Source: an uncultured Lachnospiraceae bacterium (GTDB taxonomy: Bacteria > Bacillota > Clostridia > Lachnospirales > Lachnospiraceae). Taken from it: a stretch of 49,789 bases of DNA. The notes beneath the pieces are model-generated. The model was given only the letters and a program-made list of their open reading frames with translations, made no database searches and was not told where the DNA came from. The position numbers and the translations under genes were made by a program. Shown here one piece after another: positions 1,529-24,996 of the stretch. The stretch is taken from NCBI GenBank assembly GCA_944380185.1, contig CALWGV010000040.1, forward strand, positions 1 to 49,789. The letters run 5' to 3'. The stretch's first letter is position 1, and each line of letters begins with the position of its first letter.

Positions 1529-1564
1529 AAAAAAGCCCCTGCCTCATTTAAGAGACAAAGGGCT
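1529..1564 (-). terminator. T-box regulated intrinsic terminator
   Basis: On the minus strand an AGCCC...GGGCT hairpin extends through GTCTC/GAGGC with a short ATTTAA-type loop, followed by a run of six T. It directly follows the T-box core and lies 79 bases before the transporter start, where a read-through decision would be made. Confidence 0.88.
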
Positions 1565-3129: not shown

Positions 3130-3153
3130 ACCATAGGGAAAGGAAAAGCTGAT

Positions 3154-4101
3154 ATGCAAAATACAGGCATCCCCATCTATCTGATCAACGGTTTCCTGGA
3201 GGGCGGCAAGACGGAGTTTATCCGTTTTACTATGCAGCAGGAGTATTTCAACGACGGAGAAAAAACTCTTCTCGTTGTCTGTGAGGAAGGCGAGGAGGAA
3301 TATGAACCCGCTCTGCTGGCCAAACTTCACACCGTCATGGTCACACTGGATGCAGAAAATGAACTAACCCCTGAATTTCTGCGGGAAATGAAGAAAAAAT
3401 ACCGGCCCGACAGAGTCATCATCGAATACAACGGCATGTGGCGCATGGGCACCTTGACCGAGATGAAGCTGCCGGCAGGCTATGAGCTGTATCAAATCAT
3501 CTCCATTTTCGACGCCTCCACCTTCCAGCTGTACTTAAACAACATGAAGTCTCTGGTGGTAGATATGGTGTCCCTGGCCGATATGATCGTCTTTAACCGC
3601 TGCACCGCCGATATGCCTTTGTCTATGTTTAAGCGCAGCATTCGGGCGGTCAACCGGGCCGGTGAAGTGATCTTTGAGGACGGGAAAGGCGAACTGGTCC
3701 AGTTTGAAGAAGAGCTTCCCTACGACATAGATGCTCCGATTATCGAGATCAGCGAAGATGATTTTGGCATCTGGTATGTAGATGCCCTGGACAATCCCGA
3801 CCGCTACGACGGCAAAACCGTCCGCTTCAAGGCGCGGACCCTGCGCACCCCAGCCTTCCCCAAGGGCAGTTTTCTGCCCGGACGCAACGCCATGACCTGC
3901 TGCGCTGACGATGTGGCTTTTATCGGTTTTCTGTGCTACTATGACCGCGCCAGTGAAATCAAGAGCCGCCAGTGGGTGACAGTCACCGCCAGACTTCGCT
4001 GGCAGTATTGCGAGGCCTACCAGGACGAAGGCCCCGTATTGTATGCCGCCTCCGTGGAAGACGCTCAGCCGCCCAAAGAAGATCTGGTGTATTTTAACTG
4101 A
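3154..4101 (+). CDS. G3E-like GTPase fused to a YcgQ/DUF1980-like C-terminal domain
   Basis: A 315-residue protein. The N-terminal half has a P-loop GFLEGGKTEF (about residues 13-22) and G3E-like strands, but the CxCC metal motif is replaced by the acidic CEEGEEEYEP. The C-terminal third (about 215-310) has VRFKARTLR, NAMTCCADDVAFIGFLC and a following VTVTARLRW. This resembles the C-terminal part of YcgQ/DUF1980 (TIGR03943) proteins, which are normally partnered with a YcgR-type permease. It probably forms an operon with the preceding GTPase (24-base gap, SD GGGAAAGGAAAAG). A role in metal handling at the membrane is inferred; GTP hydrolysis is not guaranteed because the G3E motifs are modified. 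No permease gene is adjacent. Confidence 0.75.
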   Translation: MQNTGIPIYLINGFLEGGKTEFIRFTMQQEYFNDGEKTLLVVCEEGEEEYEPALLAKLHTVMVTLDAENELTPEFLREMKKKYRPDRVIIEYNGMWRMGTLTEMKLPAGYELYQIISIFDASTFQLYLNNMKSLVVDMVSLADMIVFNRCTADMPLSMFKRSIRAVNRAGEVIFEDGKGELVQFEEELPYDIDAPIIEISEDDFGIWYVDALDNPDRYDGKTVRFKARTLRTPAFPKGSFLPGRNAMTCCADDVAFIGFLCYYDRASEIKSRQWVTVTARLRWQYCEAYQDEGPVLYAASVEDAQPPKEDLVYFN

Positions 4102-9842: not shown

Positions 9843-11705
9843 TCAGCTCTTCCACCGCAGCAAAAAGGCGGAATTGACAATAACCAGCACCGAGCCGGCA
9901 TTGTGCACCAGCGCACCCGACACCGGATTCAGTACATTCGCAATCGCCAGAATAATGGCAATGACATTCAGCGTCATGGAAAAGGTGAGATTGCAGCGGA
10001 TAGTCGTCATCATTCGTCTGGACAATCTCAATAGATGAGGCAGACGACGAATCTCATCGTTGACCAGAACAATGTCTGCTGCATCCACAGCAATATCGCT
10101 CCCGACACCGCCCATGGCAATTCCCACATATGCCTTCTTGAGGGCAGGTGCATCGTTGATACCGTCTCCCATCATGCAGACTTTTTGGCCTTTTTCCTGA
10201 ACCTCGTCGATAAAATGCAGCTTATCCTCCGGCAGACATCCAGCCCGATATTGATCGATCCTCAGTTCTCCGGCGATGTATCGGGCGGCATTTTCATAAT
10301 CACCGGTCAAAAGGACCGGCGTAACGCCCATGGCCTTGATCTCACTTACAGTCCTGGCAGCCGTTTCTCTCACCGTGTCCTCCAGTGCGATAAAACCGGC
10401 CAATCTGTCATCCAGCGCTATCCAGATCACCGTACATCCCTCATCCAGCAGGCTGTCTGCCTCCCGAAGCTGACTTTCTTTCGTCTCGATTCCATTGTCC
10501 CAAAGCAGCTCTACATTTCCCGCCAGAACTCTGCTTCCTTCCACTACAGCCCCTATGCCGCGCCCCGGAATCATCCGAAATTCGCTCTGACCACCCGCCT
10601 GTCCCAGTGCTTCCTCATAGCAGCGCACTATCGCTTTTCCCAGCGGATGTTCTGATCTTTTTTCTGCACAGGCCGCATACCAGTACAGCTTATCTTCGGC
10701 CACTCCCTGTATAAAGCTGCGCACCGTTTTAACACCCGGCCTTCCATAAGTCAATGTCCCGGTCTTGTCAAAAGTGATATGACTGACAGCAGCCAAACGC
10801 TCCAGGGCATCACCTTCGCGGACCAAAAAGCCGTATCGGGTCGCGTTCCCAATGGCAGCCATAATAGCCGTAGGCGTGGCCAACACCAAAGCGCAGGGAC
10901 AGAATACCACAAGAATCGTCACCGCCCGTATGTAATCCCCCGTGACCAATCCGGTAATTACCGCCGCCGCCAATGCAATCACGACAACCCAGGTGGCAAA
11001 GCGATCGGCAAAGCTGACAATTCTCGCCTTGCCGGCGTCAGCCGACTGTACCAGACGCACCATCCTCTGCAGCGAACTATCTTCCCCCACCCTGTCGGCC
11101 ACCATGTCAAAGGAACCAAAGCGGTTTACTGTTCCGCTCATCACCTCGTCTCCCTCCGCCTTATCCACCGGCAAGGATTCTCCTGTCATCACAGACTGGT
11201 CCACCGATGTATTTCCTGCGCAGATATGTCCGTCCACAGGAATCGTCTCCCCCGGCAGCACCCGCAGCATATCTCCCAGTGCGACCGACTCCGCCGGTAT
11301 GATCTCTTCCTTTCCTGCCGATATACGACGGGCATTTCTCGGTGTCAAATGCACCAGCTTTTCAATTCCTGCTCTGGCTTTCTGCACAGTCAGCTCCTCG
11401 AGAAGTCCTCCCAGCTGCATGATAAAAGCCACTTCTCCCGCTGCAAAATCCTCCCCGATAATCACAGACGCCACAAGGGCAATGGATACCAGTACATCTG
11501 CCTTGATATCAAAGGCAGTCACCAGTCCAATCACCGCCTCCAAAATAATAGGCACTCCGCACAGCACTATGGCAACCCAGGCCAGATCAAAGGGCAGCGG
11601 CGAAAAATGAAAAATGCTTCCCAGCAGGGCAGCGGCCGACACGGCCAGGAAGGCCACATCGCGCTTAGTTCCTCCCCATTCCAACAGCTGCTCCAGCTTT
11701 TTCAT
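9843..11705 (-). CDS. Heavy-metal translocating P1B-type ATPase
   Basis: A 620-residue P-type ATPase that would export a metal ion across the cytoplasmic membrane. The membrane metal site CPC is in VVFCPCALVLATPT, the phosphorylation site is DKTGTLTYG and the hinge is MMGDGINDAPAL. No N-terminal HMA domain is present. The late transmembrane helices read NLTFSMTLN and VHNAGSVLVIVNS: the Lys and Asp of ZntA-type zinc pumps are Asn and His/Asn here, and the Cu-type YN...MxxSS pattern is also absent. Metal identity is therefore open. The ATG at 11705 follows GGAGAG; a longer frame to 11723 is possible. Its promoter carries two CsoR-like operators, and a CsoR gene lies about 1 kb upstream. Confidence 0.9.
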   Translation of the reverse strand: MKKLEQLLEWGGTKRDVAFLAVSAAALLGSIFHFSPLPFDLAWVAIVLCGVPIILEAVIGLVTAFDIKADVLVSIALVASVIIGEDFAAGEVAFIMQLGGLLEELTVQKARAGIEKLVHLTPRNARRISAGKEEIIPAESVALGDMLRVLPGETIPVDGHICAGNTSVDQSVMTGESLPVDKAEGDEVMSGTVNRFGSFDMVADRVGEDSSLQRMVRLVQSADAGKARIVSFADRFATWVVVIALAAAVITGLVTGDYIRAVTILVVFCPCALVLATPTAIMAAIGNATRYGFLVREGDALERLAAVSHITFDKTGTLTYGRPGVKTVRSFIQGVAEDKLYWYAACAEKRSEHPLGKAIVRCYEEALGQAGGQSEFRMIPGRGIGAVVEGSRVLAGNVELLWDNGIETKESQLREADSLLDEGCTVIWIALDDRLAGFIALEDTVRETAARTVSEIKAMGVTPVLLTGDYENAARYIAGELRIDQYRAGCLPEDKLHFIDEVQEKGQKVCMMGDGINDAPALKKAYVGIAMGGVGSDIAVDAADIVLVNDEIRRLPHLLRLSRRMMTTIRCNLTFSMTLNVIAIILAIANVLNPVSGALVHNAGSVLVIVNSAFLLRWKS

Positions 11706-11767
11706 CCTTTTCTCTCCTCTCATTTTTGCCTCATATCTTCATGCATTAGAACAAAATAAAGGCTTTT

Positions 11768-11785
11768 TATACCCATACGGGTATA
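11768..11785. promoter_or_regulatory. CsoR-type operator 1 (TATACCCATACGGGTATA)
   Basis: A near-perfect 18-bp palindrome of the ACCC...GGGT type bound by CsoR/RcnR-family repressors. It lies at or just past the transcription start of the ATPase gene, 25 bp centre-to-centre from operator 2. Confidence 0.8.
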
Positions 11786-11790
11786 GCTTT

Positions 11791-11820
11791 ATTATACCCA
11801 TATGGGTATAAGTCTGTCAA
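11791..11820 (-). promoter_or_regulatory. Promoter of the metal ATPase
   Basis: On the minus strand, consensus TTGACA (11820-11815), 18-base spacer and consensus TATAAT (11796-11791). The spacer and -10 are covered by CsoR-type operator 2, so repressor binding would block RNA polymerase. Confidence 0.85.
11793..11810. promoter_or_regulatory. CsoR-type operator 2 (TATACCCATATGGGTATA)
   Basis: A perfect 18-bp palindrome overlapping the -10 and spacer of the ATPase promoter. It differs from operator 1 by one base. Confidence 0.85.
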
Positions 11821-11936
11821 GGATGTATTTCCTCCCTGGGCTTTGAACCTAGGGGCAGCGAATGGTATGTATATCCTATAAAGCCAATATCAGAATAATC
11901 CAGGACTTCCTTCTTAAAGCAAAAATGAAATAAATA

Positions 11937-11990
11937 AAAACGCACCTTATGTTTTCAGAAGGCTCTTGTCTCCTTCACAAGGTGCGTTTT
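11937..11990. terminator. Terminator after the coiled-coil gene
   Basis: Perfect 12-bp arms AAAACGCACCTT/AAGGTGCGTTTT enclose a second small hairpin (GAAGG/CCTTC). On the minus strand a TTTTTATTTATTT run follows. A smaller repeat CAAAAGG/CCTTTTG lies at 12027-12048. Confidence 0.75.
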
Positions 11991-12070
11991 ATTTTATGAT
12001 TTTCTAAATTATGATGTTGGGATCAAAAGGTATTTTGACCTTTTGCCCCTGATATCATTATATGCCAAAC

Positions 12071-12490
12071 CTATGCAGGTTCCCCATTTCTCTCCTTAAG
12101 CTTTCTCACGTCATCTGCAAGCAGGTTCAAACGGATTCGCATAATCTCCTTCTCATTTTCCACCCGCAGCGCTTCATCCAGCTTTCGCGTTAAATCCAGA
12201 TGACCTTCCGCAATTATGGTGATGTTCCGGTTAGTAACTTCATCAAGTGTGATCTGAACATCGCTCAGCCGCTTATTAAGCCCTTTTACTGAATCCTCTG
12301 TACCGTCAAGACGCTTTCCCATTCTGTCCAGACGTTCATCCACCACAGTCAAATGTTTCTCCACGCCATCCAAGCGCTGATCTACAGCACTCAGACGTTT
12401 TTCCACGCCTGCCATTCTGTCCCCCAGAATCAGCACATTGGCGTTTACCTTTCCAATTTCGTCTAAAATGAGCTGAACATGATCAACCAT
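12071..12490 (-). CDS. Coiled-coil protein of unknown function
   Basis: A 139-residue, highly charged protein. The middle (about residues 22-85) is a heptad-like run with repeated units such as VEKRLSAVDQRLDGVE, predicting a long coiled coil; there is no signal peptide or membrane segment. I start it at the ATG at 12490 because AGGAGG lies eight to nine bases upstream; the longer frame to 12550 lacks an SD. It resembles short coiled-coil proteins common in Firmicutes, but no specific family or function can be assigned. It lies between csoR and the metal ATPase, with its own terminator; no functional link to metal is evident. Confidence 0.65.
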   Translation of the reverse strand: MVDHVQLILDEIGKVNANVLILGDRMAGVEKRLSAVDQRLDGVEKHLTVVDERLDRMGKRLDGTEDSVKGLNKRLSDVQITLDEVTNRNITIIAEGHLDLTRKLDEALRVENEKEIMRIRLNLLADDVRKLKERNGEPA

Positions 12491-12705
12491 GGCCTGCCCT
12501 CCTCCTTTTGGGGTGCTTCTACAACTTTGCTCCTTTTGTTTCTTTCCCACTTCAAAAGAAAGTTCTCTGGGTCATATCCACGCCGGCGATGATCCGCATC
12601 CGATATCGTACCAATATGGTAACACATAAAAGACATTTTGTCCAGCAAATCTCTGCATATTACGCTCTTTTTTTACGCTTAAATGTTTTTGATTATAACC
12701 GCCGG

Positions 12706-12747
12706 CGGCCGATAAGCCCCCATAAACTTAAAGAGACTTACCGGCCG
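12706..12747 (-). terminator. Hairpin after csoR
   Basis: Arms CGGCCGATAAG and CTTACCGGCCG (one mismatch/bulge) immediately follow the csoR stop on the minus strand. There is no T run, so termination is uncertain; it may only stabilise the mRNA end. Confidence 0.4.
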
Positions 12748-12753
12748 TTAGCG

Positions 12754-13029
12754 TCATACCATATTGGCAAACCGCTCCACTGCCTTCGTGAAGCTGGCAA
12801 TCGTTTGTTCCGCATCGCCATGCTCGATCCCATCCCGCACGCAGTGATTGATATGTCCTTCCAGGACTACGCGCCCCACCGAATGCAGAGCCGATTTAGC
12901 CGCATTGATCTGCGCCAAAATATCCTCACAGGGCACATCCTCATCCACCATTCGATCGATGGCCTGCACCTGACCAATGATTTTCTTTAATCTGCGGTGA
13001 AGATTATCCGCATCCATACACTGTCTCAA
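12754..13029 (-). CDS. csoR: CsoR/FrmR-family metal-sensing repressor
   Basis: An all-helical DUF156 repressor of about 91 residues. The core LHRRLKKIIGQVQAIDRMV is followed by Cys34, then His59 and Cys63 in the EGHINHC segment (numbered from TTG 13029). This C-H-C triad is the Cu(I)-binding pattern of CsoR, unlike the Ni/Co RcnR or formaldehyde FrmR sets. The TTG start is chosen because AGGAGG lies eight bases before it; the GTG at 13038 overlaps the SD. Two matching operators sit on the metal ATPase promoter at 11768-11810, so that gene is the evident target. No operator is seen on its own promoter. Confidence 0.88.
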   Translation of the reverse strand: MRQCMDADNLHRRLKKIIGQVQAIDRMVDEDVPCEDILAQINAAKSALHSVGRVVLEGHINHCVRDGIEHGDAEQTIASFTKAVERFANMV

Positions 13030-13102
13030 TGCCCGCACCTCCTGTCATTCGCAGCCTCTTGCATTTTCTCCGCTGCAGCTGTCCTTACTCGTCTTCCCTC
13101 CC

Positions 13103-13232: not shown

Positions 13233-14654
13233 TCAGCCATCTATACCGAAATGGCGCATCCAGCGGGCACACATGCTGACGGCCTCCTCCCGCAGCGGCA
13301 TCTCGCAGAAGATGCGAAGCAGGGGCTCTGTCCCGGAAAACCGGGCGATAATCCAGCCGCCATTCTTGAAATACACCTTACAGCCATCCAGGTAGGACAC
13401 GTGATCCACCTCATAGGGTGCCATGTCCGGCAGCTCCTTCTCCTCAAAAAGGCGGTGCATCAGTTTCTCTTTTACCTGCTTGGTGAAATGGCAGGAATAC
13501 TCTTCCATATAACTCTGTCCGCACTCCGCCGTCACCACATTCATCAGCTCAGACAGACGTTTTCCCGTCACCGCCAGCATTTCGATCAGCAGTGCGGCCG
13601 CATATACTCCATCTTTACCATTAATATGACCGGCCACCGTCAGACCGCCGGAGGATTCTCCTCCCAGGATTGCTCCTGTCTCCTGCATTTTGGCCGAGAT
13701 ATACTTAAATCCTACTGGCACCTCATAGCAGGTCTCTCCAAAAGCTGCAGCCAGACGATCCAGCCGATGAGTGGTGGCGATATTGCGCACCACAGGCCCC
13801 TTCCATTTTCGGTATTTCAGCAGATAATAGTACAGAAGCACCAGGATATCATTGGGGTGCAGATACCGGCCGGTATCATCGATGACCCCCAGGCGGTCCG
13901 CATCGCCGTCGGTGGCAATGCCCAGATCCAGATGACGGTCCAGCACGGAAGTCTTGAGCATTCCCAATGTGTCCTCCGACGGAGCAGGCATCCTGCCTCC
14001 GAAAAGTGTGTCATGCTCCCGATGAATCACCGTAAGATCGCAGCGTCCGGAGATCAGGATTGTGCCCAGGGCCGTCTCGCTGACACCGTACATGGGGTCC
14101 AGAGCGATCCGCAGATGGGCATTCTTGATAGCCTCCATGTCGACTTTTTCCATAATATCATCTATATATTCGTTCATCGGATAGAACTCATGGACCAGTC
14201 CCAGCTCTACCGCCTGAGGGTATTCTATTTTGTGAATATCCCCAGGCTTTACTGCAGCGATATACCTTTCGATATCCGCCGTCTGCGTCTCATCAGCGTC
14301 CCGACCTCCGGCGGTAAAAACCTTGATGCCATTATACAGGGCCGGATTGTGGCTGGCCGTAACCATCATCCCATAGGGATAATCGTGTTTCATCACGTAA
14401 AACATAATCAACGGCGTAGGTACCGAACGGTTGACAAAGTGGCAGACAATCCCCTCCGCCGTCAAAACCTCGCAGGCCCACATCACCGTTTCCTTGGACA
14501 GGAAACGCCGATCATAGCCGATGACAATCCCCTGGTCATCCACGCCCTCCGCCTTCATCTTCTCCGCCATGGCTTTGGCCAGTATACAGATATTTTCTCT
14601 GGTAAAATCATCTCCGATGATGGCTCTCCAGCCCCCGGTTCCGAATTTAATCAT
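13233..14654 (-). CDS. Alpha-D-phosphohexomutase (phosphoglucomutase/phosphomannomutase)
   Basis: A 473-residue mutase that would interconvert hexose 1- and 6-phosphates. All four family sites are visible: GTGGWRA at the N-terminus, the phosphoserine loop TASHNPALYNG, the Mg loop DGDADRLG and the phosphate-binding RFSGTEPLLRI, plus the sugar loop GGESSGG. It is the last gene of the transport operon, 12 bases after the HAD phosphatase. The position suggests it processes an imported sugar phosphate, for example glucose 1-phosphate to glucose 6-phosphate; glucose versus mannose preference cannot be read. Confidence 0.9.
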   Translation of the reverse strand: MIKFGTGGWRAIIGDDFTRENICILAKAMAEKMKAEGVDDQGIVIGYDRRFLSKETVMWACEVLTAEGIVCHFVNRSVPTPLIMFYVMKHDYPYGMMVTASHNPALYNGIKVFTAGGRDADETQTADIERYIAAVKPGDIHKIEYPQAVELGLVHEFYPMNEYIDDIMEKVDMEAIKNAHLRIALDPMYGVSETALGTILISGRCDLTVIHREHDTLFGGRMPAPSEDTLGMLKTSVLDRHLDLGIATDGDADRLGVIDDTGRYLHPNDILVLLYYYLLKYRKWKGPVVRNIATTHRLDRLAAAFGETCYEVPVGFKYISAKMQETGAILGGESSGGLTVAGHINGKDGVYAAALLIEMLAVTGKRLSELMNVVTAECGQSYMEEYSCHFTKQVKEKLMHRLFEEKELPDMAPYEVDHVSYLDGCKVYFKNGGWIIARFSGTEPLLRIFCEMPLREEAVSMCARWMRHFGIDG

Positions 14655-14666
14655 ATTCCCTCCCCA

Positions 14667-15284
14667 TTACCTTCCCACCGGAATGCCAGCTGCACCGAGC
14701 TCCCGGCGCAGTCTGGCCACATCTCCGTCAAATACGCTCCCCCGCATTCCTGTGCAGAGGGCTCCCTCCACATTGAGAGGAGAATCGTCGATAAAATAGC
14801 ACTCCTCCGGATTTAGGTCATAGCGGTCATACAGCACACGATAGATCTCCGCCTGTGGCTTTAACAACAGCTCTTCTGCCGAGACAACGATACCATCCAG
14901 ATATCGACTGCCCGGTATCCGGGGAAGATATTCCCGCAGGCGGCGATTTGCGTTGCTGAGCAGGTACAGATGGAAGCCCAGTCCTTTGAGTTCTGCCATC
15001 AGCTCCTCCATGCCCTCCACAGGAATCAGCGGGCGCCTCCACCAATGGCAAATCAGCTCCTTCGCCGCCTCATGCAGATGGTCAGGCAGCCGCCTGCAGA
15101 CCGCAGCCGCCGTCCCCTCCTCATCCAGAGTCCCCCGATCAAACTGGACCCACTCCACCTGGCCAAAGACCTCCCGGAGCAGAAGTTTGGCATCCTCCCC
15201 TTCGATCCCCAGACGGCGGATAAATTCCACGGGGGTAAAACGGATCAGTACCTGGCCCATATCAAAGACAATATTTCGGATCAT
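14667..15284 (-). CDS. HAD-superfamily (subfamily IA, YihX-like) phosphatase
   Basis: A 205-residue HAD hydrolase. Motif I is FDMGQVL (nucleophile Asp8, with Gly where other HADs have the second Asp, as in YihX-type enzymes), motif II LLSNA at about residues 96-100 and motif IV FIDDSPLNVEGA. YihX acts on glucose 1-phosphate, which would fit this operon, but substrate specificity cannot be deduced from sequence. Its ATG shares one base with the permease stop (TGATG), so it is translated coupled to the transporter. Hydrolysis of an imported sugar phosphate is the inferred role. Confidence 0.82.
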   Translation of the reverse strand: MIRNIVFDMGQVLIRFTPVEFIRRLGIEGEDAKLLLREVFGQVEWVQFDRGTLDEEGTAAAVCRRLPDHLHEAAKELICHWWRRPLIPVEGMEELMAELKGLGFHLYLLSNANRRLREYLPRIPGSRYLDGIVVSAEELLLKPQAEIYRVLYDRYDLNPEECYFIDDSPLNVEGALCTGMRGSVFDGDVARLRRELGAAGIPVGR

Positions 15285-17223
15285 CAGCCCTGCACTCCCT
15301 TCGCTTCCTGTTTGACCGCCATCTGAGCCTCGGGCTTGGGACGCCTCTTAAAGTGCGCCATCAGCTTCTCTCTTCTCTTCTTTCTCTTATCCCGCAGCTC
15401 CAGCCGATCGCCCAGATCACGGCCGCCCACTCCATAGACCAGGTACAGGATGATGCCGGATACAACCATGATAAAGACTGTGGATGCACAGCGCCGGCCC
15501 GAGGCATTGACATTGTAGCCGTACATGCCCTCCTCCTCACACATGCTCTGAATCACCATGGCATATGTGGTTCCGTAGGAGCTGGCAAAGGTGGCCGACA
15601 TGTCATATTCCGTAAAGAGGGCGTTGAAGTTCAGGGCGAAAACAGCCATGACGCTGGGCAGAATTATGGGCAGCTTTACCTTCAGGAAGGTGCGCAGCCC
15701 GCTGGCCCCCAGGTTTTTTGCGGCGTCTTCCAACTCCTCGTCTATGGCGTAGAAAGATGCCTTGATCATGCGCAAAGAGAAGGGCAGCTTCGTCACCGTG
15801 TAGGCCATAATAATCAAAAATCGCACATTCTCGGCATAATAGAGATTCTGGTTGCCCACATACCACACCGCATCGCTGTTGAAAAATGTGCGGTAGGAGT
15901 AGCAGATCAGAATCGTGGGCAGCAGCCAGGGAAAGAGAAGACAGTATTCCAGTATTGTACTTCTCTTTTTCTTGCGGTTCTTAAAGATATAGTTGCAGGC
16001 CACCACCACAATGAGGCAGGCCAAGAGCGCCGCTATAGCCGACATGATAAAGCTGAGCTTGATGCCGCCTAAGGTGGCATCGTTGGAGAAGAGTCCCGAT
16101 ATGGCTCCTTCCCTCAGCCGATAAGTGCCTCTGGACGTGAGGTACTCATAATCCTGCGTGCCAAAGAAATTGATCAGCGTCCAGTTGCTCAGATCCAGCT
16201 TCTTCATCCGGATCGCCCCGTAGGTCTGGAAGGAGAAAATCACAATCATCACCACGGGAATCATGTAGATGACAAAGAGAATGTAGGCGTAAATATGGGC
16301 GAGCACATTGGCCACAGGATTCGTGATCTTCTGCTTCTGCAGTCTCGCTTTTGTCTTGGAAACGGACAGATAATGTCCTTTCCTCTCATAGGCCGACAGC
16401 ACCGTCAGAAGTACGATAGTAAACATGGCCAGGATAATAGAAAGAAGAGCCGCTCTGGCCTGCGGGAAAGCCTCGTCTGCCGTAGACGAACCGGCCAGAC
16501 GGACGATCTCCGGGTTGATGGAATCGTATCCCAGAAGGGTGGGAGCCGACATAGCGCACAGGCCGGTGATAAAAGTCATAACCGTCAAAGAAAACATCGT
16601 AGGCAGAAGGGTAGGGAAGACTACCTTCAGCAGCACCTTAAACGGCCTGGCCCCCATATTGCGAGCCGCTTCCACTGTGTTGTAATCGATGCTTCGGATG
16701 GCATTTCGCAGAAACAATGCATGGTTGCTGGTACAGGCAAAGGTCATGGTAAACAGCACCGCATTGAATCCCGAAAACCAGTTGCGGTTCATATTCGGGA
16801 AGGCATTGGCCAGCATGGTGGTCAGAATGCCGTCACTGTCATAGAGGAACAGATAGCCTGTGACCAGGGCCACGCCGCTGTAGATCATGGTGGTCATATA
16901 ACCCAGCCGCAGGATTCGAGCTCCTTTGATATCAAAATACTCCGTCAAAAGGACGATGGAGACGCCGACAATATTGACCGTCACCACCAGACATATGGCC
17001 AGCTTCAGGGAATTGAGCACATAGCGGCCCATATTTCCGGCAAAGAAAAAGCGGATAACCGCCAGGGGATCGGTCTCTCCCGCCGCATTCTTGGTCGTAA
17101 AAATGCTGGTCAGCGTGTTTAGACAGGGCACCAGCATAAATCCAAAAAACAGATAGGCAAAAAGGGCGACGCCTACCATCCGGACGACAATCTCCGGATT
17201 CAGCCGTTTGGATTTCGTTCCGT

Positions 17224-17227
<4 letters not shown>
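15284..17227 (-). CDS. Fused double-domain ABC permease (AfuB/FbpB-like)
   Basis: A 647-residue membrane protein made of two permease domains in one chain. Each domain has an EAA loop that docks the ATPase: EAARNMGARPFKVLLKV in the first (about residues 185-200) and EDAAKNLGASGLRTFLKV in the second (about 495-512). About twelve hydrophobic segments are seen. Fused permeases of this kind belong to the Fe3+/AfuB/2-aminoethylphosphonate class. It overlaps the ATPase gene by four bases and is coupled to the HAD phosphatase. Transport of phosphorylated sugar rather than iron is inferred from the neighbours. Confidence 0.9.
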
Positions 17228-18267
<1,040 letters not shown>

Positions 18268-18343
18268 CTCCTTTTCTATTCCAGTGTCTCCGCCCCTCCG
18301 GGCATTATTGCGTCCGCCAGAGCATTTCCGTCGGCGACAAGAC

Positions 18344-18371
18344 GTGGCGAGCCGGAAATCCGGCCCGCCAC
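18344..18371 (-). other. Intercistronic hairpin between binding protein and ATPase genes
   Basis: Twelve-base arms with 11 pairs (GTGGCG.GCCGG/CCGGC.CGCCAC) and a four-base loop, not followed by a T run. Such stems between a binding-protein gene and its transporter genes typically stabilise the upstream mRNA and lower downstream expression; that role is inferred here. Confidence 0.6.
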
Positions 18372-18408
18372 ATTCAATACTTATCTTTCAGCTTACCGGC
18401 CGTTCTCG

Positions 18409-19695
18409 TCAGGATGCGGCCTGCGTCAGTGTAGCCCAGTCAAGGTTATCCCAGTCGGGCTCAGGATTCGGGCTGTTCATGTCGGCCCAGTAGAAGCCCA
18501 GGTTGGTCATAATGTTAGTCCACTCGCTGGAGTGCTCGGCAACGTATTCCGCATAGGTCATGCCTGTTCCCTCGATCTCGGTCAGCGCGAAGTTCGGCAG
18601 CGTGTAGATCGAAGGCACTCCGTCGGGATAGAGGATCTCGGCAGCAGCCTGATTGCAGGGATAGGAGTCAAACTCTTCGCCCCAGGCAGCCTGAACATCC
18701 GCGGAGCCAAACCATTCAGCAAATGCCTTGACCGCTTCTGTCTGCTCCTCGGTACGGCCTTCCTTATCCAGAATGCCGATATACTCTGCTATATAGTAGG
18801 TTCCATCATCGATCTGCACCAGATCCCAGTTCTCCGGCTCCAGGGTGCCTAACAGAGGATGCTCAGAGCTCTCGGCAGCGGCATCGATATTGCCGTACAG
18901 GGAAGAGGAGTAGAACGTGGATACCTGAACATCACCGCGATTCAATGCATCGAAGCCGTAGTCGTCTCCGGTGAACACACCGTTCTGGCAGTACTGCCAC
19001 AGCGTCTTCCAGCCGTCTACGGAGATGCCGCCCGCAGGGGAATCGGGATCAACAAAGGAGTACAGCATGGAAGAGTTGATATTGGAATTGGTGGTGCCGC
19101 CCACTTTGCCCTGACGATACCAGGTATATCCGCAGTCCACAATGTCGGCCCAGTGCTCAAAGTGAAGCTCCTCACCATTTGTGCCGTACTCGTCGGTGCG
19201 GTAGAGCATCAGGATATTCTGGATGACCAGACCGTAGGCATAGCCGGGATAAGCGTATTCGCCCACTTCCTCAGCCCAGGAGGGCGTCCAATCAATCAGG
19301 GAGAGATTCTCATAGACACCGTTTACCAGCTGGCTCCAGCGGGTCTCATTGAGACCGAAAATCAGGTCGCCGTCTTTGTTCTCATTGGCAGCCTGAATAG
19401 CGGCTGTATCGCCGGAAATAACGCTGTTATCATCCATAGAGATGGTAAAACCGGCATCCCGGGCCTCATTGATCAGCCAGGTAGCTCTCTCTGTGGAATT
19501 GGAATTTGAATAGATGCGGATGGTATAATCGGAATAATCCTTGACCTCCTCGGCGTCCTCGCCGGAAGTCTCCTCGGCGCCGCCTGCGCCGGATGTAGCG
19601 CCTCCGCCTGCCGCCGTCTCATCGCCGCCGCCGGAGCAGCCAGCCAGAGAAAGCACCATGGCAAGGGCCAGCAGTAGTGCAAGAACCTTTTTCAT
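18409..19695 (-). CDS. Lipoprotein substrate-binding protein of the ABC importer
   Basis: A 428-residue extracellular binding protein. Residues 1-20 are a lipoprotein signal ending LAGC, followed by a Gly/Ser/Glu linker to about residue 55. The remainder looks like a family 1 periplasmic-binding fold with a long insert rich in Trp and Tyr. It starts with the conserved-style MKKVLALLLALAMV and SD GGAG. It is the first gene of the importer operon and diverges from a sensor trio. Fe3+, polyamine-like or sugar-phosphate binding are all known in related classes; the operon's mutase and phosphatase favour a sugar phosphate. Confidence 0.85.
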   Translation of the reverse strand: MKKVLALLLALAMVLSLAGCSGGGDETAAGGGATSGAGGAEETSGEDAEEVKDYSDYTIRIYSNSNSTERATWLINEARDAGFTISMDDNSVISGDTAAIQAANENKDGDLIFGLNETRWSQLVNGVYENLSLIDWTPSWAEEVGEYAYPGYAYGLVIQNILMLYRTDEYGTNGEELHFEHWADIVDCGYTWYRQGKVGGTTNSNINSSMLYSFVDPDSPAGGISVDGWKTLWQYCQNGVFTGDDYGFDALNRGDVQVSTFYSSSLYGNIDAAAESSEHPLLGTLEPENWDLVQIDDGTYYIAEYIGILDKEGRTEEQTEAVKAFAEWFGSADVQAAWGEEFDSYPCNQAAAEILYPDGVPSIYTLPNFALTEIEGTGMTYAEYVAEHSSEWTNIMTNLGFYWADMNSPNPEPDWDNLDWATLTQAAS

Positions 19696-19740
19696 ATCCT
19701 TTTCTCCTTTTCTTGAAAGACAATGGGTACCTATGTATAT

Positions 19741-19769
19741 ATTTTAAAGAAATCTTCCTTCCATGAGAA
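19741..19769 (-). promoter_or_regulatory. Proposed activated promoter of the importer operon
   Basis: On the minus strand, a poor -35 (TTCTCA), 17 bases and -10 TAAAAT (19746-19741). The weak -35 suits a promoter that needs an activator; candidate activator sites lie just upstream at 19796-19832. Confidence 0.4.
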
Positions 19770-19795
19770 CAGGGCAAAACTGCAATAATTAAGGA

Positions 19796-19832
19796 TATTC
19801 TGTTGAGAATGTCTATAAATGTATTCTGTCAA
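19796..19832 (-). promoter_or_regulatory. Direct repeats, candidate response-regulator sites
   Basis: TATTCTGTTGA (19796-19806) and TATTCTGTCAA (19822-19832), identical in eight consecutive bases and spaced 26 bp apart. They fall about 60-100 bases upstream of the proposed importer transcription start. Repeats of this type are usual targets for YesN/AraC-type regulators, and such a regulator is encoded at 22836-23582. Confidence 0.45.
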
Positions 19833-19937
19833 CCTTGTTTTATGTGCATTTCGCCATATATTTTCATCTCTCCCTCCCCGTGCTTCCGTCAATAATTCTT
19901 GATGCAGAGCATTTTTCGGCTGCAATGTGAAATTCAT

Positions 19938-19966
19938 TTGTACTTTGAAATAAGATTAGGTATAAT
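19938..19966 (+). promoter_or_regulatory. Promoter of the sensor operon
   Basis: TTGTAC, 17-base spacer, consensus TATAAT (19961-19966), 58 bases before the sensor lipoprotein start. A near-consensus sequence suggests steady expression of the sensory genes. Confidence 0.65.
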
Positions 19967-20024
19967 AATAGGAAATAAACCCGGTATAAACAGAGCCGGC
20001 GCAGGGTGGGGGCGAGATATACAG

Positions 20025-21143
20025 ATGAAAAGGCTAACGCACAGAATACGGCAGAAATACAGAAAAGCAGAGGCAATTCTGCTGTCATTTTTCTGTTTGA
20101 TTGCCTTTTTTTCCGCCTGCACACCCCGGCAGGACACGACGGACTATCTCCAGGAGCCGGATGAAAACCAGCGCCTTTCGATCTGCACCTCCATCCCGTC
20201 AGCTGTCTATGAGCCTATCGTCCGGGAGTTCGAGGCAAGGACAGGCATATGGGTCACGGTAGATACCGGCGGCAGCCTGGAGCTTCTGCAGAAAATTTCC
20301 GATGCAGGTGATTCCTCCTGGGATATTATACTGGGAGGCGGTCTGGACAGTCTGGAGGCCCACCGTGGTCTTTTTTCCTCCTATAGAAGTCCTCTGTTGA
20401 ACGCGGCAGCCCCTTCCTATCTTCCCGAAGAAGACTGCCTCACTCCATTTTCCGTGGTTCCTCTGGTCCTGGTATACAATCCAAAGCTGGCGCGGATCCA
20501 TCCTCCCTCCGGTTTTGACAGCCTGCTGGATGCCGCCTGGAAAGGACGCATTGCCTTTGCCGACCCCGCCATCTCCGGCACCAGCTATACCGTCCTTGCT
20601 TCTCTGCTGCAGATTCTTCCTGGTGATGATACAGAACTTCTGCGGTCCTTCGCCGCCAATCTGGACGGCCAGCTGCTCTCCCATTCCAGCGATGTGATCC
20701 GCGAAGTGGCCAACGGAAACTGTTATATCGGTATGGTGGGCGAAGACGACGCTCTGCGGGCTATGGATGCCGGTTACGATATTGCTGTGGTTTACCCTGT
20801 CGAGGGGACCTGTGCCATCGCCGACGGCGCAGCCATCCTAAAGGACTGTGCCCATGAGGAAAATGCCCGCCTTTTTATCGATTTTCTCCTGAGTCAGGAT
20901 GTCCAGACCTATATCGAAACCGCCTGCCTGCGCCGCTCTGTCCTGGACGGTTCTCTGCGCGAGAGCCTGGGCACGGACGAGACATCGCAAGATACATGGC
21001 AGGGAAACAATTCTTCTGATCGTCTTTTCAGCGATTACTCCGACGACTTCGTCCAGTTTTCTTACGACATCGCCCTGTCAGCCGGCAGGCAGGAAGAAAC
21101 TCTGCGCATCTGGCAGAAGATCTGGGAGGAGGAAAACCCGTGA
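20025..21143 (+). CDS. Extracellular sensor lipoprotein, HptA/PgtC-like (Fe3+-type binding fold)
   Basis: A 372-residue lipoprotein starting at the ATG at 20025 (SD GGTGGGGG). The signal segment at about residues 15-30 ends at FFSAC. The body matches the COG1840 binding-protein class: WDIILGGG, WKGRIAFADPAISGTSYT, EGTCAIADGAAILKD and LFIDFLLSQDVQ. In known three-component systems (HptRSA of Staphylococcus for glucose 6-phosphate, Pgt of Salmonella for phosphoglycerate) such proteins bind the ligand outside and signal to the kinase. The gene overlaps the kinase start (GTGA), so they are made together. It is separate from the importer's own binding protein. Confidence 0.85.
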   Translation: MKRLTHRIRQKYRKAEAILLSFFCLIAFFSACTPRQDTTDYLQEPDENQRLSICTSIPSAVYEPIVREFEARTGIWVTVDTGGSLELLQKISDAGDSSWDIILGGGLDSLEAHRGLFSSYRSPLLNAAAPSYLPEEDCLTPFSVVPLVLVYNPKLARIHPPSGFDSLLDAAWKGRIAFADPAISGTSYTVLASLLQILPGDDTELLRSFAANLDGQLLSHSSDVIREVANGNCYIGMVGEDDALRAMDAGYDIAVVYPVEGTCAIADGAAILKDCAHEENARLFIDFLLSQDVQTYIETACLRRSVLDGSLRESLGTDETSQDTWQGNNSSDRLFSDYSDDFVQFSYDIALSAGRQEETLRIWQKIWEEENP

Positions 21144-22843
21144 AAACCTGGATTCGCCGCTCTTTCCGCAATCGAATTTTCCTGACCGTTCTGCTGGTTA
21201 CTCTTTTACCCCTGCTGTTCTGCAATGTACTGATGATGCAGATGCAGGTAGTGCGAAGCGAGATGAGCCTGGCCAGGGAAGCCCGCGATCAGCTTGCCGC
21301 ACTGGACAGCGCTCTGGACAAGCTCTGCCTCTCCTTTGATGAGATGTCTGACGAGCTGTGCGAAAGCACTGCCGTGCGCAGCGCTCTCCGCCAAAATAAT
21401 GCCGATTCCCGCGTTCTGTATCAGCTCCTGTTTCGTGTCACTGACGAACTGCGGGAATATGCCCGCTTCGACATCTGCGACAGTGAAGGCTCCTGCCTGT
21501 ACACCACAGACGCCACTGTCCCTACAGGAGCTCTCTATACCAACTGGGGCATTCTTTACGCTGCTTCCCATTCTCAGGAGCTGGTCTTTCGCTCCGGGGA
21601 GGGCAATGTGGCCCTGATGGCCGCCCGGGCTGTCCGCAGCTACGATGCCAGTGTTTTGGGCTATGTGGTGATATCCATTACCCCCGACAATTTTGATTAC
21701 CTGTTTCGGGAGCTCTACAGCGCTGCCAGCGATATCATCCTGATGGATCCTTTCTGGCAGCCGATCTACCACTCTCAGCCAGCCCAGACAGAAACTGTAG
21801 TGGAAAGTCTGCGCAGTCAGCTTCTCGCCGGCGAAGCACTGACCGGCGCTGGCGGCGACTACTATTATTATGCCTCCCCCCACCAGGAGACCGGCTTTTC
21901 GCTGATTCTTCAGCAGCCGATGACTTTTACCTCCACGGTGATGCACACCATCTACGGCGTCAGCCTGTTGATGGGCCTTTTATGCCTGCTTTTATGTCTG
22001 TGGTGTGCCTGGCTTCTGAGCCGCCATCTTTTCCGTCCCATCCGTCAGTTGGACGAAGCCATGGGCGAGGTCAAAAAGGGGAACTTTGACGTCCATCTGG
22101 ACACAGAAAGGCAGGATGAACTGGGTCGTCTGGCCGACAGCTTCAATCACATGGCTGAAGAGTATCAGGCAAATCTGACCCGGTCTGTGTCCAGGCAGAA
22201 AGAGCTCAATGACACTCAGCTGAGGATGCTGCAGGCCCAGCTCAACCCCCATTTTCTATACAACACTCTGGACACCATGAAATGGCTGGGCGTTGCCCAT
22301 CACGTGCCGCAGATCGCAGAGCTGGCCTCCGACCTGGCCATCATTCTGCGGGCCGGCATCTCCGGGGATGAGATCATCACCGTAGAACAGGAGCTGGAGC
22401 TCATCGACCGCTACCTGGCCATCCAATCCATTCGTTTTGAGGACCGCTTCACCTGTGAAATCGACATTCCGGAAGAGTTCCAGAGCTGTCTGATCCCCAA
22501 AATGGCTCTGCAGCCTCTGGTGGAGAATGCCATCATCCACGGCGTTGCCGACAGGAACGACGGCTACATCAAACTGTGGGCGGAGCAAAAAGGAGACGAT
22601 CTGTTCCTGTCCGTCTCCGATAACGGCTGCGGCATTTCCCAAAAACAGCTGGCGGATCTGAGCCGGCGATCAAAAAAGAAGCCCTCCGATCAGGGCTCCC
22701 ATCTGGGATTATTCAATGTAAACAGTATTATTCGGCTGCACTTTGGCGAGCCCTACGGCCTGTCCATCCGTTCACAGCAAGGAGAAGGCTGCTGTGTCAC
22801 GCTGCGGCTGCCAATACAGAGGAGGAGAGACGAAAATGCTTAA
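21140..22843 (+). CDS. YesM/HptS-like sensor histidine kinase
   Basis: A 567-residue membrane kinase. A first transmembrane helix (about residues 12-35), an extracellular domain of about 240 residues, a second helix (about 278-302), then HAMP (HLFRPIRQLDEAMGEV). The phospho-acceptor His is in LNPHFLYNTLDT (about residue 375), N-box PLVENAIIHGV and G-box SDNGCGIS follow. It starts with GTG at 21140, overlapping the sensor lipoprotein stop. It should phosphorylate the adjacent response regulator when the sensor protein signals ligand. Confidence 0.92.
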   Translation: MKTWIRRSFRNRIFLTVLLVTLLPLLFCNVLMMQMQVVRSEMSLAREARDQLAALDSALDKLCLSFDEMSDELCESTAVRSALRQNNADSRVLYQLLFRVTDELREYARFDICDSEGSCLYTTDATVPTGALYTNWGILYAASHSQELVFRSGEGNVALMAARAVRSYDASVLGYVVISITPDNFDYLFRELYSAASDIILMDPFWQPIYHSQPAQTETVVESLRSQLLAGEALTGAGGDYYYYASPHQETGFSLILQQPMTFTSTVMHTIYGVSLLMGLLCLLLCLWCAWLLSRHLFRPIRQLDEAMGEVKKGNFDVHLDTERQDELGRLADSFNHMAEEYQANLTRSVSRQKELNDTQLRMLQAQLNPHFLYNTLDTMKWLGVAHHVPQIAELASDLAIILRAGISGDEIITVEQELELIDRYLAIQSIRFEDRFTCEIDIPEEFQSCLIPKMALQPLVENAIIHGVADRNDGYIKLWAEQKGDDLFLSVSDNGCGISQKQLADLSRRSKKKPSDQGSHLGLFNVNSIIRLHFGEPYGLSIRSQQGEGCCVTLRLPIQRRRDENA

Positions 22844-23582
22844 AGTACTGGTAGTGGACGACGAATCTGTCGTGAGGAAGGGAATTGTGCTGGGAGTAAA
22901 CTGGGCCTCCATGGGCTGCATCGTGGCTGGCGAAGCTTCTAACGGGGAAGAAGGGCTGGCCGCAGTGAAGCGGTACAATCCCAATCTGATTATCACCGAC
23001 GTGAGAATGCCCAAAATGGACGGTCTGCAGATGGTCCGCGAACTTCGCGCTCAGGGCTGCCGGGCCTATGTCATCCTGCTGACCGCCTACAACGATTTTG
23101 AGTACGCCCGCACTGCCCTGCAGCTGGGAGCCGTGGACTATCTGCTGAAGCCTTTCCGCGATCAAGAGCTGGCCGCAGCCATCGACCGCATACGCCAGCG
23201 GGAGCAGGAGCAGACCTCGCTCACTCCAGGAGATCTGCTCCCTCTTCCCAAAGGTGACAAAAGCAAATATGTGCTGCAGGCAATGAACTATATCTCGGAG
23301 CACTATCAGGATCAGGATATCAGCATCACGCCCATTGCCAGGCATTTAGGCGTCAGCGAAAGTCATCTCAGTCACGTCTTCAAAAAGGAAACCAACTATA
23401 CGATCATCAACTATCTCACCCAATACCGCATTCACATGGCCATGAATCTTCTGCGGGACTGCCGCCGCAAGGTCTATGAGGTGGCAGAGATGGTGGGGTA
23501 TCGGGATGTGGCTTATTTTGGCAGCACCTTTAAAAAACTGGTAGGCATGAGCCCCTCCGAGTATCAGGACCGGTGCCGATAG
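22836..23582 (+). CDS. YesN/HptR-like response regulator with AraC-type DNA-binding domain
   Basis: A 248-residue regulator. The receiver domain has DDES, phospho-acceptor Asp in NLIITDVRMPKMDG (about residue 54), LLTAYND and LLKPF with the conserved Lys. The C-terminal 100 residues are an AraC double helix-turn-helix (ISITPIARHLGVSESHLS, then GYRDVAYFGSTFKKLVGMSP). Start ATG follows GGAGGAG and overlaps the kinase by eight bases. The likely target is the divergent importer promoter, where direct repeats lie at 19796-19832. Confidence 0.92.
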   Translation: MLKVLVVDDESVVRKGIVLGVNWASMGCIVAGEASNGEEGLAAVKRYNPNLIITDVRMPKMDGLQMVRELRAQGCRAYVILLTAYNDFEYARTALQLGAVDYLLKPFRDQELAAAIDRIRQREQEQTSLTPGDLLPLPKGDKSKYVLQAMNYISEHYQDQDISITPIARHLGVSESHLSHVFKKETNYTIINYLTQYRIHMAMNLLRDCRRKVYEVAEMVGYRDVAYFGSTFKKLVGMSPSEYQDRCR

Positions 23583-23615: not shown

Positions 23616-24116
23616 CTACATATCGCAGAGAACCTTTGCCCTCAGATACTTCAGCACCTTCATCAGCGGGCGGTAGAGCGCTAACGTCATGGCAAAATTG
23701 CCTGCGCAGTGCAGAATATCGAACATCAGGCCGGACGTCCACCAGGCCAGCGCCGTCCCTATGCCTCCGGCCAGCAGATAAGGCAGGGAGCACAGCGCAC
23801 CAAAAGCCAGCCCGAACAATGCGTTCACCACGGCCCACACGAGAACAGAATCATTTTTTCTGAGCAGGCGAACCACCAGATAGAGCACCGCCCAGACATA
23901 GAGATACATAAACCACCACAGACCAAAGCCATAGGTCACTCCCTGCAGCAGAACGTAGGCATAGATTGCCGTCAGCGCCCTGCGTCCGAATGTCAGTGTG
24001 TATACCAGCACCAGTATGGATACCGGTTCAATATTGGGCAAAAAAGCCATTGCCACCTGGCTTACATGCAGTATGGCACCCAGCAGTGCCATGACCGCCA
24101 GTTCTCTCGCCTTCAT
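23616..24116 (-). CDS. ECF transporter S-component (probably corrinoid/CbrT-like)
   Basis: A 166-residue hydrophobic protein with five to six membrane segments, typical size and shape for an ECF substrate-specificity subunit (N-terminal ALLGAILHVSQVA, later FGALCSLPYLLAGG). No ECF ATPases are adjacent, so it would use a shared energising module encoded elsewhere. It is 60 bases downstream of a DUF4430 gene in a transcript headed by a cobalamin riboswitch, which argues for cobalamin or a precursor as substrate. Motifs alone do not fix the vitamin. Confidence 0.8.
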   Translation of the reverse strand: MKARELAVMALLGAILHVSQVAMAFLPNIEPVSILVLVYTLTFGRRALTAIYAYVLLQGVTYGFGLWWFMYLYVWAVLYLVVRLLRKNDSVLVWAVVNALFGLAFGALCSLPYLLAGGIGTALAWWTSGLMFDILHCAGNFAMTLALYRPLMKVLKYLRAKVLCDM

Positions 24117-24176: not shown

Positions 24177-24584
24177 TCAATAGCCGTATCCCACCGTCAG
24201 CGTAATTTCAAAGTGATCCCCATCGGATACCAGCGTTGTATCTACTCCGGTGTTCAGCTGTTCTCCATCCTTGGTAAAGCACCACCATTCCTCATTGGAG
24301 GAATCCGCCGTATATCCATCCACAGTCTCCACGAACATTCCGTACTCCGACTCACTGCCGGCAATCAATCCTGCCGGTTCCAGCACGTCCCTCAGATATT
24401 CTGCATCGGTATCGTAGGTAAACTCTTTGGATTCACCGTCCTTATGCACCACCTCGACCACAATGCTCTTGTCGCCCTCGCTGGCGGCCGGTCTGGTCGC
24501 CATATAAATCCCTGCCGCCGCCACGACAGCGACGATCAGCACCAGCACAGCCAGCAAACCCTTCTTCTTTCTCTTGTCTTCCAT
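24177..24584 (-). CDS. Membrane-anchored DUF4430 protein, likely corrinoid-binding
   Basis: A 135-residue protein: charged N-terminus, one membrane segment (about residues 9-29), then a DUF4430/transcobalamin-like domain with FTYDTDAEYLRDVLEPAGLI, NEEWWCFTKDGEQL and a closing FEITLTVGYGY. The start is the ATG at 24584 after AGGAGG; a longer frame runs back into the riboswitch terminator and is spurious. DUF4430 resembles the C-terminal beta domain of B12-binding intrinsic factor/transcobalamin. The B12 riboswitch and following ECF S gene support a surface B12-capture role; binding is inferred. Confidence 0.82.
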   Translation of the reverse strand: MEDKRKKKGLLAVLVLIVAVVAAAGIYMATRPAASEGDKSIVVEVVHKDGESKEFTYDTDAEYLRDVLEPAGLIAGSESEYGMFVETVDGYTADSSNEEWWCFTKDGEQLNTGVDTTLVSDGDHFEITLTVGYGY

Positions 24585-24681: not shown

Positions 24682-24769
24682 GTATTGCAGCGAAAAGACA
24701 AGCTGCCAATCGCAGGCCGCCTGCCTCTCGCAATACAATCGCCAATTACCCGTGGTATTGTATCTCCAA

Positions 24770-24940
24770 ACAGCAGGCAGGTCTTCTGGCTCAAGGATCA
24801 TTGCCGGCCGCCGTCTTCCCGGTTGCCCAGTGACTGGCAGGCGGTCCGCTCCCCTTTTACAGCGACGGGTTCGCACAGGCATTCCACCTGTTTCCCTTTT
24901 CATCCCGAACCTTTTTTATATCTTCCGGGAACCTTGCTGT
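24770..24940 (-). promoter_or_regulatory. Cobalamin (B12) riboswitch aptamer
   Basis: On the minus strand the class signatures appear in order: closing P1 (ACAGCA with TGCTGT at the two ends), GGGAAACAGGTGGAATGCC, GCTGTAAAAGGGGAGC, CCAGTCACTGG (kissing-loop region), CCGGGAAG and the B12-box region GAGCCAGAAGACCTGCC. Ligand binding should lead to the downstream terminator and shut off the DUF4430/ECF-S pair. Confidence 0.93.
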
Positions 24941-24996
24941 TTTCACGTCATTTATATATGCTTTTATTTTTATGTGTTTTCGATCAGGGCCATTTA

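What the first reader, a model, noticed from the sequence alone, without database searches (positions are those of the whole stretch)
13233..23582. Putative sugar-phosphate uptake system: AfuABC-like importer, HptRSA-like sensor trio, phosphatase and mutase in one locus
Seen: binding lipoprotein, ATPase, fused AfuB/FbpB-type permease, HAD phosphatase and phosphohexomutase in one operon with tight coupling (four-base and one-base overlaps). Divergent are a COG1840-type sensor lipoprotein, YesM-like kinase and YesN-like regulator with overlapping genes. Known: AfuABC of Actinobacillus imports hexose phosphates though classed with Fe3+ importers; HptRSA senses extracellular glucose 6-phosphate. 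Inference: this bacterium senses extracellular phosphorylated sugar, imports it by ABC transport and handles it with a mutase and phosphatase. The combination of both modules plus dedicated enzymes would be a new arrangement in a gut Clostridium.
Basis: partly seen in the sequence, partly recalled or inferred. Interest (0 to 1): 0.82.

Follow-up and report, generated by a model that had tools for sequence, protein, structure and literature searches.

The report
Regulated sugar-phosphate importer with enzymes
A gut bacterium carries a sensor-controlled pump, together with a phosphate-removing enzyme and a phosphate-moving enzyme, that most likely lets it feed on phosphate-tagged sugars outside the cell; the pump belongs to a conserved family that also occurs in other gut Clostridia and has no tested function known to us.

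Summary
The genes are as described. An operon (SBP, ATPase, fused permease, HAD hydrolase, phosphohexomutase) faces a divergent sensor lipoprotein, YesM-type kinase and AraC-type regulator. The sensor's nearest solved relative is S. aureus HptA. The importer is not AfuABC: its binding protein matches no solved structure by sequence and lacks AfuA's His-Asp. It is a separate family, 76-95% identical over the 80 best loci, mostly Clostridia, three spirochaetal.

New evidence: (1) a 40-bp operator 70 bp before the binding-protein gene. It stands in 18 of 19 sensor-linked loci after clade-out scoring and in 3 of 53 others, whose genomes carry the kinase elsewhere. Nineteen operator-less genomes tested lack the kinase. 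(2) In relatives the HAD (64 of 82 loci) is sometimes followed by a ROK-like kinase (7), lyxose/mannose isomerase (4), ManA (2) or fructokinase (1); [Clostridium] asparagiforme has only the mutase. (3) An AfuA-like importer lies beside the cassette in 8 operator-bearing genomes, with a weaker operator-like site upstream.

Best reading: two-component-induced ABC uptake of hexose phosphate, processed by phosphatase or mutase; hexose 1-phosphate, perhaps of mannose, fits best. The substrate is inferred, not shown. The arrangement recurs in other genomes.

The parts
13233..14654 (-). phosphohexomutase (PGM/PMM superfamily, 473 aa), extra copy
   Evidence: Pfam PGM_PMM I-IV; catalytic motifs intact; one of 4 PGM-family proteins in the genome
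14667..15284 (-). HAD-IA hydrolase (205 aa), nearest named solved relative YihX glucose-1-phosphate phosphatase
   Evidence: family alignment A5
15284..17227 (-). fused ABC permease (647 aa, two BPD_transp_1 domains)
   Evidence: 76-95% identical relatives, best 80 of 132
17224..18258 (-). ABC ATPase (ATG 18258; TTG 18267 also possible)
   Evidence: NCBIfam PhnT2 354 bits, below cut-off 457.7
18409..19695 (-). importer binding lipoprotein (428 aa)
   Evidence: SBP_bac_8; AlphaFold model pLDDT 85, SBP fold
19741..19769 (-). promoter-like -35/-10 (TTCTCA-17-TAAAAT) next to the operator
   Evidence: 9 of 12 consensus positions; the scan finds about chance numbers of such sites (11 against 8.6 expected)
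19766..19805 (-). predicted 40-bp operator: half-sites CAGAAT / CAGTTT 20 bp apart
   Evidence: 39.3 bits, 27.9 bits with its clade left out; only exact pattern match in the own genome
20025..21143 (+). HptA-like sensor lipoprotein (ORF from 19899; ATG 20025 preferred)
21140..22843 (+). YesM/HptS-like sensor histidine kinase (567 aa)
   Evidence: PF06580, HATPase_c, HAMP
22836..23582 (+). YesN/HptR-like response regulator with AraC HTH (248 aa)
   Evidence: PF00072, PF12833; start

Best explanation
A signal-induced ABC importer for phosphorylated hexoses. The HptA-like lipoprotein binds an extracellular phosphorylated sugar and the kinase phosphorylates the AraC-type regulator. The regulator binds the two half-sites at 19766-19805, beside a weak -35, and switches on the importer operon. 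The importer's own lipoprotein and permease/ATPase bring the hexose phosphate in. Inside, the HAD enzyme removes the phosphate and/or the mutase moves it to carbon 6, feeding glycolysis. Shown by computation: gene content, operon layout, operator, its link to the kinase, catalytic motifs. Inferred: ligand, direction, phosphotransfer, enzyme substrates. Within this class a hexose 1-phosphate (mannose and/or glucose 1-phosphate) fits the enzyme set best.
For: Sensor nearest HptA (8e-43), then AfuA and P5PA, all binders of phosphorylated compounds (HptA binds G6P: passages of PMC13419708). Operator: best site 25-58 bits in 19 of 19 trio loci, against 3 of 53 trio-less upstream regions with a comparable score. 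Leave-clade-out, 18 of 19 beat every trio-less region. The 3 operator-bearing trio-less genomes have the kinase elsewhere, 3 of 3; of 20 further genomes, 19 without the operator lack it and the one that has it (L040) has no visible SBP upstream. One site with <=2 mismatches in 20 of 21 genomes, each on the importer contig. S. aureus HptR binds uhpT at -67 to -96 (PMC6291074 passages), a similar distance. HAD in 64 of 82 loci, directly downstream in 60, nearest YihX. Followers within 160 bp of the preceding gene: ROK-like kinase in 7, D-lyxose/mannose isomerase in 4, ManA in 2, fructokinase in 1. In [C.] asparagiforme the mutase stands in place of the HAD. AfuA-like importers beside the cassette in 8 operator genomes, GFLHD...E motif kept in 8 of 8. 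Three distant sister importers are followed by a GDPD-DUF4996 protein (1) or DUF4996 proteins (2).
Against: The importer's binding protein has no sequence match in the PDB, and its fold search is not decisive: a putative AEP-binding protein, beta-glycoside- and Fe3+-binding proteins and AfuA lie within about 2 Z units. The HAD and mutase score far below every equivalog cut-off. Thirteen of 82 loci have room for a HAD and lack one. In 44 of the 60 loci with a HAD directly downstream no mutase, ManA, isomerase or ROK-like gene follows within 160 bp; three of those (L039, L041, L048, close relatives) have a PfkB gene farther on, KDG-kinase-like in the one copy scanned. Three of the four isomerase loci are close relatives. 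AfuA residue E229 is not kept in the sensor (read from the alignment). AfuA-like proteins are no commoner in trio/operator genomes (10 of 22) than in the others searched (8 of 11). On the tree, starred branches give only 4 independent pairs for trio-operator linkage, too few for significance.
Confidence: 0.58

Rival explanations
1. The importer takes up another organophosphate (glycerophosphodiester, sugar phosphodiester, phosphonate or vitamin phosphate); the HAD cleaves what it brings.
For: The ATPase's best NCBIfam match is the putative 2-aminoethylphosphonate PhnT2. Sister importers in G057 and G034 are followed by a GDPD-DUF4996 protein (L034) or DUF4996 proteins (L035, L036) in 3 of 3 loci. 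The top VIA match is 4r6y, a putative AEP-binding protein, tied with others. P5PA, an AfuA homologue, binds pyridoxal phosphate (PMC8427247 passages).
Against: The SBP has no PhnS or P5PA sequence match. The sister importers are only 38% identical in the permease. Where metabolic genes follow in this family they include mutase, ManA, mannose isomerase and sugar kinases.
Confidence: 0.22
2. The importer takes up an unphosphorylated sugar or oligosaccharide; the HAD and mutase serve general sugar metabolism.
For: Beta-glycoside and other sugar-binding proteins score about as high as any in the fold comparison. Isomerase, kinase and ManA would also serve free mannose.
Against: A phosphatase-type gene overlapping or abutting the permease gene in most loci (60 of 64 HAD loci directly downstream) makes little sense for a free sugar. 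The sensor is of the HptA type.
Confidence: 0.13
3. It is a ferric iron (Fbp-type) or other metal importer.
For: The fold is shared with FbpA/FutA. A metal-sensitive repressor and a P-type ATPase lie just downstream in the window and in L037.
Against: No Fur-box match in the window with up to 3 mismatches. The metal genes have their own promoter-like site and do not follow the operon in L032 or L056.
Confidence: 0.04

Closest known systems
HptRSA-UhpT of Staphylococcus aureus
   Same: Sensor lipoprotein, two-component kinase and regulator; HptA is the nearest solved relative of the sensor; operator at a similar distance before the transport gene.
   Different: The controlled transporter is an ABC importer, not the UhpT antiporter (no UhpT-family protein over the cut-off in the genome); ligand unknown.
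AfuABC of Actinobacillus pleuropneumoniae / Citrobacter rodentium
   Same: SBP + permease + ATPase of the same broad type; probable hexose phosphate cargo; an AfuA-like importer neighbours the cassette in 8 operator-bearing relatives.
   Different: SBP without sequence match and without the His-Asp motif; permease 21-24% identical to the neighbouring AfuB-like one; two-component control and dedicated enzymes.
YihX (E. coli alpha-glucose-1-phosphate phosphatase)
   Same: Nearest named solved structure to the HAD (about 6e-11); both HAD-IA type.
   Different: 43.8 bits against a family cut-off of 295: not an orthologue.
PhnSTUV / PhnT2 2-aminoethylphosphonate importers
   Same: Related ATPase and two-domain permease.
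   Different: All below cut-off; the importer SBP matches no PhnS model.

Membership tests
AfuABC hexose-phosphate importer | SBP with the sugar-binding residues His205, Asp206, Glu229 (PMC4546632 passages) | tested here: not met
   0 of 42 aligned SBPs contain any His-Asp pair; profile finds no PDB sequence; profile-profile match to AfuA-like proteins covers only the N-terminal half
AfuABC hexose-phosphate importer | SBP, permease and ATPase genes in one operon | tested here: met
AfuABC hexose-phosphate importer | binds and imports G6P/F6P | not testable with these tools
   needs binding and growth assays
HptRSA sensing system | HptA-like binding lipoprotein | tested here: met
   best solved relatives 6lki/6lkg (HptA) at about 1e-42 by profile
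HptRSA sensing system | PF06580-type kinase and AraC-type response regulator in the same operon | tested here: met
   (that HptS/HptR are of these types is recalled)
HptRSA sensing system | controls a UhpT antiporter | tested here: not met
   predicted operator lies before an ABC importer; no TIGR00881 match over cut-off in an 84%-complete genome
HptRSA sensing system | sensor binds glucose 6-phosphate | not testable with these tools
   no ligand data; AfuA's Glu229 position is not conserved
Fbp-type ferric importer | Fur-type control | tested here: not met
   0 matches to the 19-bp Fur box with up to 3 mismatches in the window (box recalled)
Fbp-type ferric importer | iron-coordinating tyrosine pair in the cleft (recalled) | tested here: inconclusive
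   41 of 42 SBPs hold a Tyr-Tyr pair, but no reliable alignment places it in the cleft
2-aminoethylphosphonate importer (PhnT2/PhnS2) | scores above curated cut-offs | tested here: not met
   ATPase 354.4 vs 457.7; permease PhnU2 51.2 vs 593; SBP none
YihX glucose-1-phosphatase | NF006991 equivalog score | tested here: not met
   43.8 vs 295 bits
PGM/PMM phosphohexomutase superfamily | catalytic Ser loop, metal loop, sugar loop, phosphate loop | tested here: met
   four Pfam domains; TASHNP 99, DGDADR 249, GESSGG 332, RFSGTEP 438 (loop roles recalled)

The most novel reading that the evidence does not exclude
The cassette is a new family of ABC importer dedicated to hexose 1-phosphates (mannose 1-phosphate and/or glucose 1-phosphate), switched on by an HptRSA-like system. 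Relatives process the cargo by two interchangeable routes: phosphatase plus kinase or isomerase, or one-step mutase.
Probability: 0.27. Interest if true: 0.68.

Novelty: new variant of a known kind. Interest (0 to 1): 0.5.

Why it matters
Sugar phosphates were found in the mouse gut at micromolar levels, and AfuABC and UhpABCT were the only known uptake systems named there, for Gram-negatives (PMC4546632 passages). A conserved, sensor-controlled importer family in Lachnospiraceae and Oscillospiraceae would extend sugar-phosphate feeding to anaerobic commensals. Curated family models place its permease and ATPase only near molybdate, phosphonate and polyamine transporters, below their cut-offs. 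The 40-bp operator and the named strain [Clostridium] asparagiforme DSM 15981 make the idea directly testable.

Tried and rejected
Rejected: calling the importer AfuABC. Rejected as main reading: iron uptake. A fold match does not settle the substrate; absence of families from those lists is not evidence. Of 15 three-mismatch operator matches elsewhere in 21 genomes I read nine and, apart from the one beside afuA in G749, saw no sugar-uptake neighbour by eye; the reversed control pattern matched 4 times in the same genomes. The AfuA-upstream site is inverted, weak (-2 to 16.6 bits) and partly from near relatives; two trio-less genomes (G764, G762) also gave a site with a low shuffle frequency, at another distance. 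L042's operator does not stand when its clade is left out (16.9 against a trio-less maximum of 17.1), and the pattern misses it. Counts include near relatives. The 80 loci are the best of 132 found with patterns of the window's own permease, so counts describe that sample. In evenly drawn genomes the permease is rare at E<=1e-150: 2 of 390 others in the class and 0 of 298 others in the phylum sample. The AlphaFold model of the ROK-like protein is mediocre (pLDDT 63.6), and its profile has no PDB sequence match below E 0.07.
Full report
Observation. The minus-strand operon reads binding lipoprotein, ATPase, fused permease, HAD hydrolase, phosphohexomutase. The plus-strand unit reads sensor lipoprotein, kinase, regulator, all overlapping. 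Three of the six same-genus genomes searched hold the SBP, at 78-95% identity; in two of them the whole locus is seen and in the third (G002, = L042) the mutase runs off the contig.

The trio. A profile of 16 sensor orthologues finds S. aureus HptA first (6lki/6lkg, about 1e-42), then AfuA (1e-33) and the PLP-binding P5PA (3e-31). That 6LKK is HptA with G6P is taken from passages of PMC13419708. Kinase and regulator are of the YesM/AraC types. The system is HptRSA-like; its ligand is unknown and AfuA's Glu229 is not kept.

Operator. Upstream regions of the binding-protein gene from trio-bearing loci share a 40-bp element, ACAGAAT-N7-ATAATCGCAG-N2-TTGTCC-N-GTT, with half-sites 20 bp apart. Scores are 25-58 bits in 19 of 19 trio loci. 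Of 53 trio-less upstream regions three score 47-55 and the rest at most 12.8; 1440 shuffles reach at most 11.2. Rescored with each clade left out, 18 of 19 exceed every trio-less region (27.9-46.1 against at most 18.9); L042 does not. The three exceptions (L058, L075, L081) carry the kinase elsewhere in their genomes, 3 of 3. Of 20 further trio-less genomes only L040's has the kinase, and L040's contig starts inside the SBP gene, so its operator cannot be seen. A pattern search of 21 genomes gives one site with <=2 mismatches in 20 of them, each on the importer contig. In the window's genome the only exact match is 19768-19802, within the operator 19766-19805; three others have 3 mismatches. 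The operator lies beside a poor -35 and a TAAAAT -10, 70 bp before the start codon; HptR binds uhpT at -67 to -96 in S. aureus (PMC6291074 passages).

What happens to the cargo. In 82 non-duplicate loci the HAD is present in 64, absent with room in 13 and unseen at a contig end in 5; in 60 of the 64 it directly follows the permease, often with a 4-base overlap. Its nearest named solved relative is YihX, a glucose-1-phosphate phosphatase (about 6e-11), but it is far below that family's cut-off. In 16 of those 60 loci a mutase, ROK-like, isomerase or ManA gene follows within 160 bp; in 44 none does. The followers: a 547-580 aa protein in 7 loci with no Pfam or NCBIfam match in the two members scanned, DxGGT/NDG/GTG motifs and ROK glucokinase/hexokinase as top Foldseek hits of a mediocre model; a D-lyxose isomerase homologue in 4 (L068 copy: Pfam 325.6 bits; NCBIfam D-lyxose/D-mannose isomerase 259.9, below its cut-off 350); a ManA in 2 (L065 copy: 146.6 against cut-off 116.2); and in L068 also a fructokinase-like PfkB (below cut-off). 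The mutase is in 5 loci: four of the window's genus (L042's cut by the contig end) and [C.] asparagiforme, where it replaces the HAD. The window's genome holds three other PGM-family proteins and a ManA, so the mutase is an extra copy. A phosphatase followed by a kinase is futile unless the phosphate is not at carbon 6; a mutase that can replace the phosphatase says the same. ManA and mannose isomerase point to the mannose configuration. This is inference.

AfuABC link. An AfuA-like protein (E<=1e-40) occurs in 18 of 33 genomes searched: 10 of 22 with trio or operator and 8 of 11 others; none in the window's genome. In 8 operator genomes it lies on the same contig within about 10 kb of the cassette, and so it does in one genome without operator (G765). 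Upstream of afuA the best operator-like site is inverted and at 107-130 bp in 9 of 9 genomes with trio or operator and AfuA near (in G739 on a separate contig), and at that place and orientation in 0 of 8 others; the scores are weak. If real, one sugar-phosphate sensor controls both importers in those bacteria.

Sister group. Three distant cassettes (permease 38% identical) in G057 and G034 are followed by a GDPD-DUF4996 protein (one) or DUF4996 proteins (two), so the wider family may lean to organophosphates.

Literature. AfuABC and P5PA papers were seen as passages, the HptRS paper as passages, and the G6P-sensor preprint as passages. The listings (titles and abstract starts of the papers shown) held none on this importer family, and (mannose-1-phosphate import) found no paper with its terms; most subscription papers are outside that library.

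Verdict. A real, recurrent, regulated importer-plus-enzyme system; sugar-phosphate uptake is the most likely function (0.58). Hexose 1-phosphate specificity is the boldest reading the data allow (0.27).

Noticed in passing
window 24759-24952 (-): Cobalamin riboswitch (117.5 bits) before a DUF4430 gene (24177-24584) and a small membrane-like protein (23616-24116, no Pfam match): a likely B12-regulated uptake unit.
   Followed up: partly
window 1548-1801 (-): T-box leader (109.1 bits) before a sodium/bile-acid-symporter-family protein (497-1450): an amino-acid-tRNA-controlled transporter of that family looks unusual.
   Followed up: no
window 2038-4101 (+): Two adjacent CobW-type GTPase genes, the second with a DUF1980 C-terminal domain.
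   Followed up: no
window 9843-13038 (-): Metal-sensitive repressor (PF02583) and P-type ATPase just downstream of the mutase, with a promoter-like site at 13131-13103.
   Followed up: partly
L046:11522-13258 and 6 relatives: A 547-580 aa ROK-like protein with no Pfam or NCBIfam match in the two members scanned, after the HAD in 7 loci: possibly a new sugar-kinase subfamily.
   Followed up: partly
L040, L072, L075, L083 between ATPase and permease: A methyltransferase-like gene (about 204 aa, by eye) inserted inside the importer operon.
   Followed up: no
L034:194-2386, L035, L036: LacI-type HTH fused to an SBP_bac_8 domain (730 aa, only the L034 copy scanned) next to the distant sister importers.
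   Followed up: no
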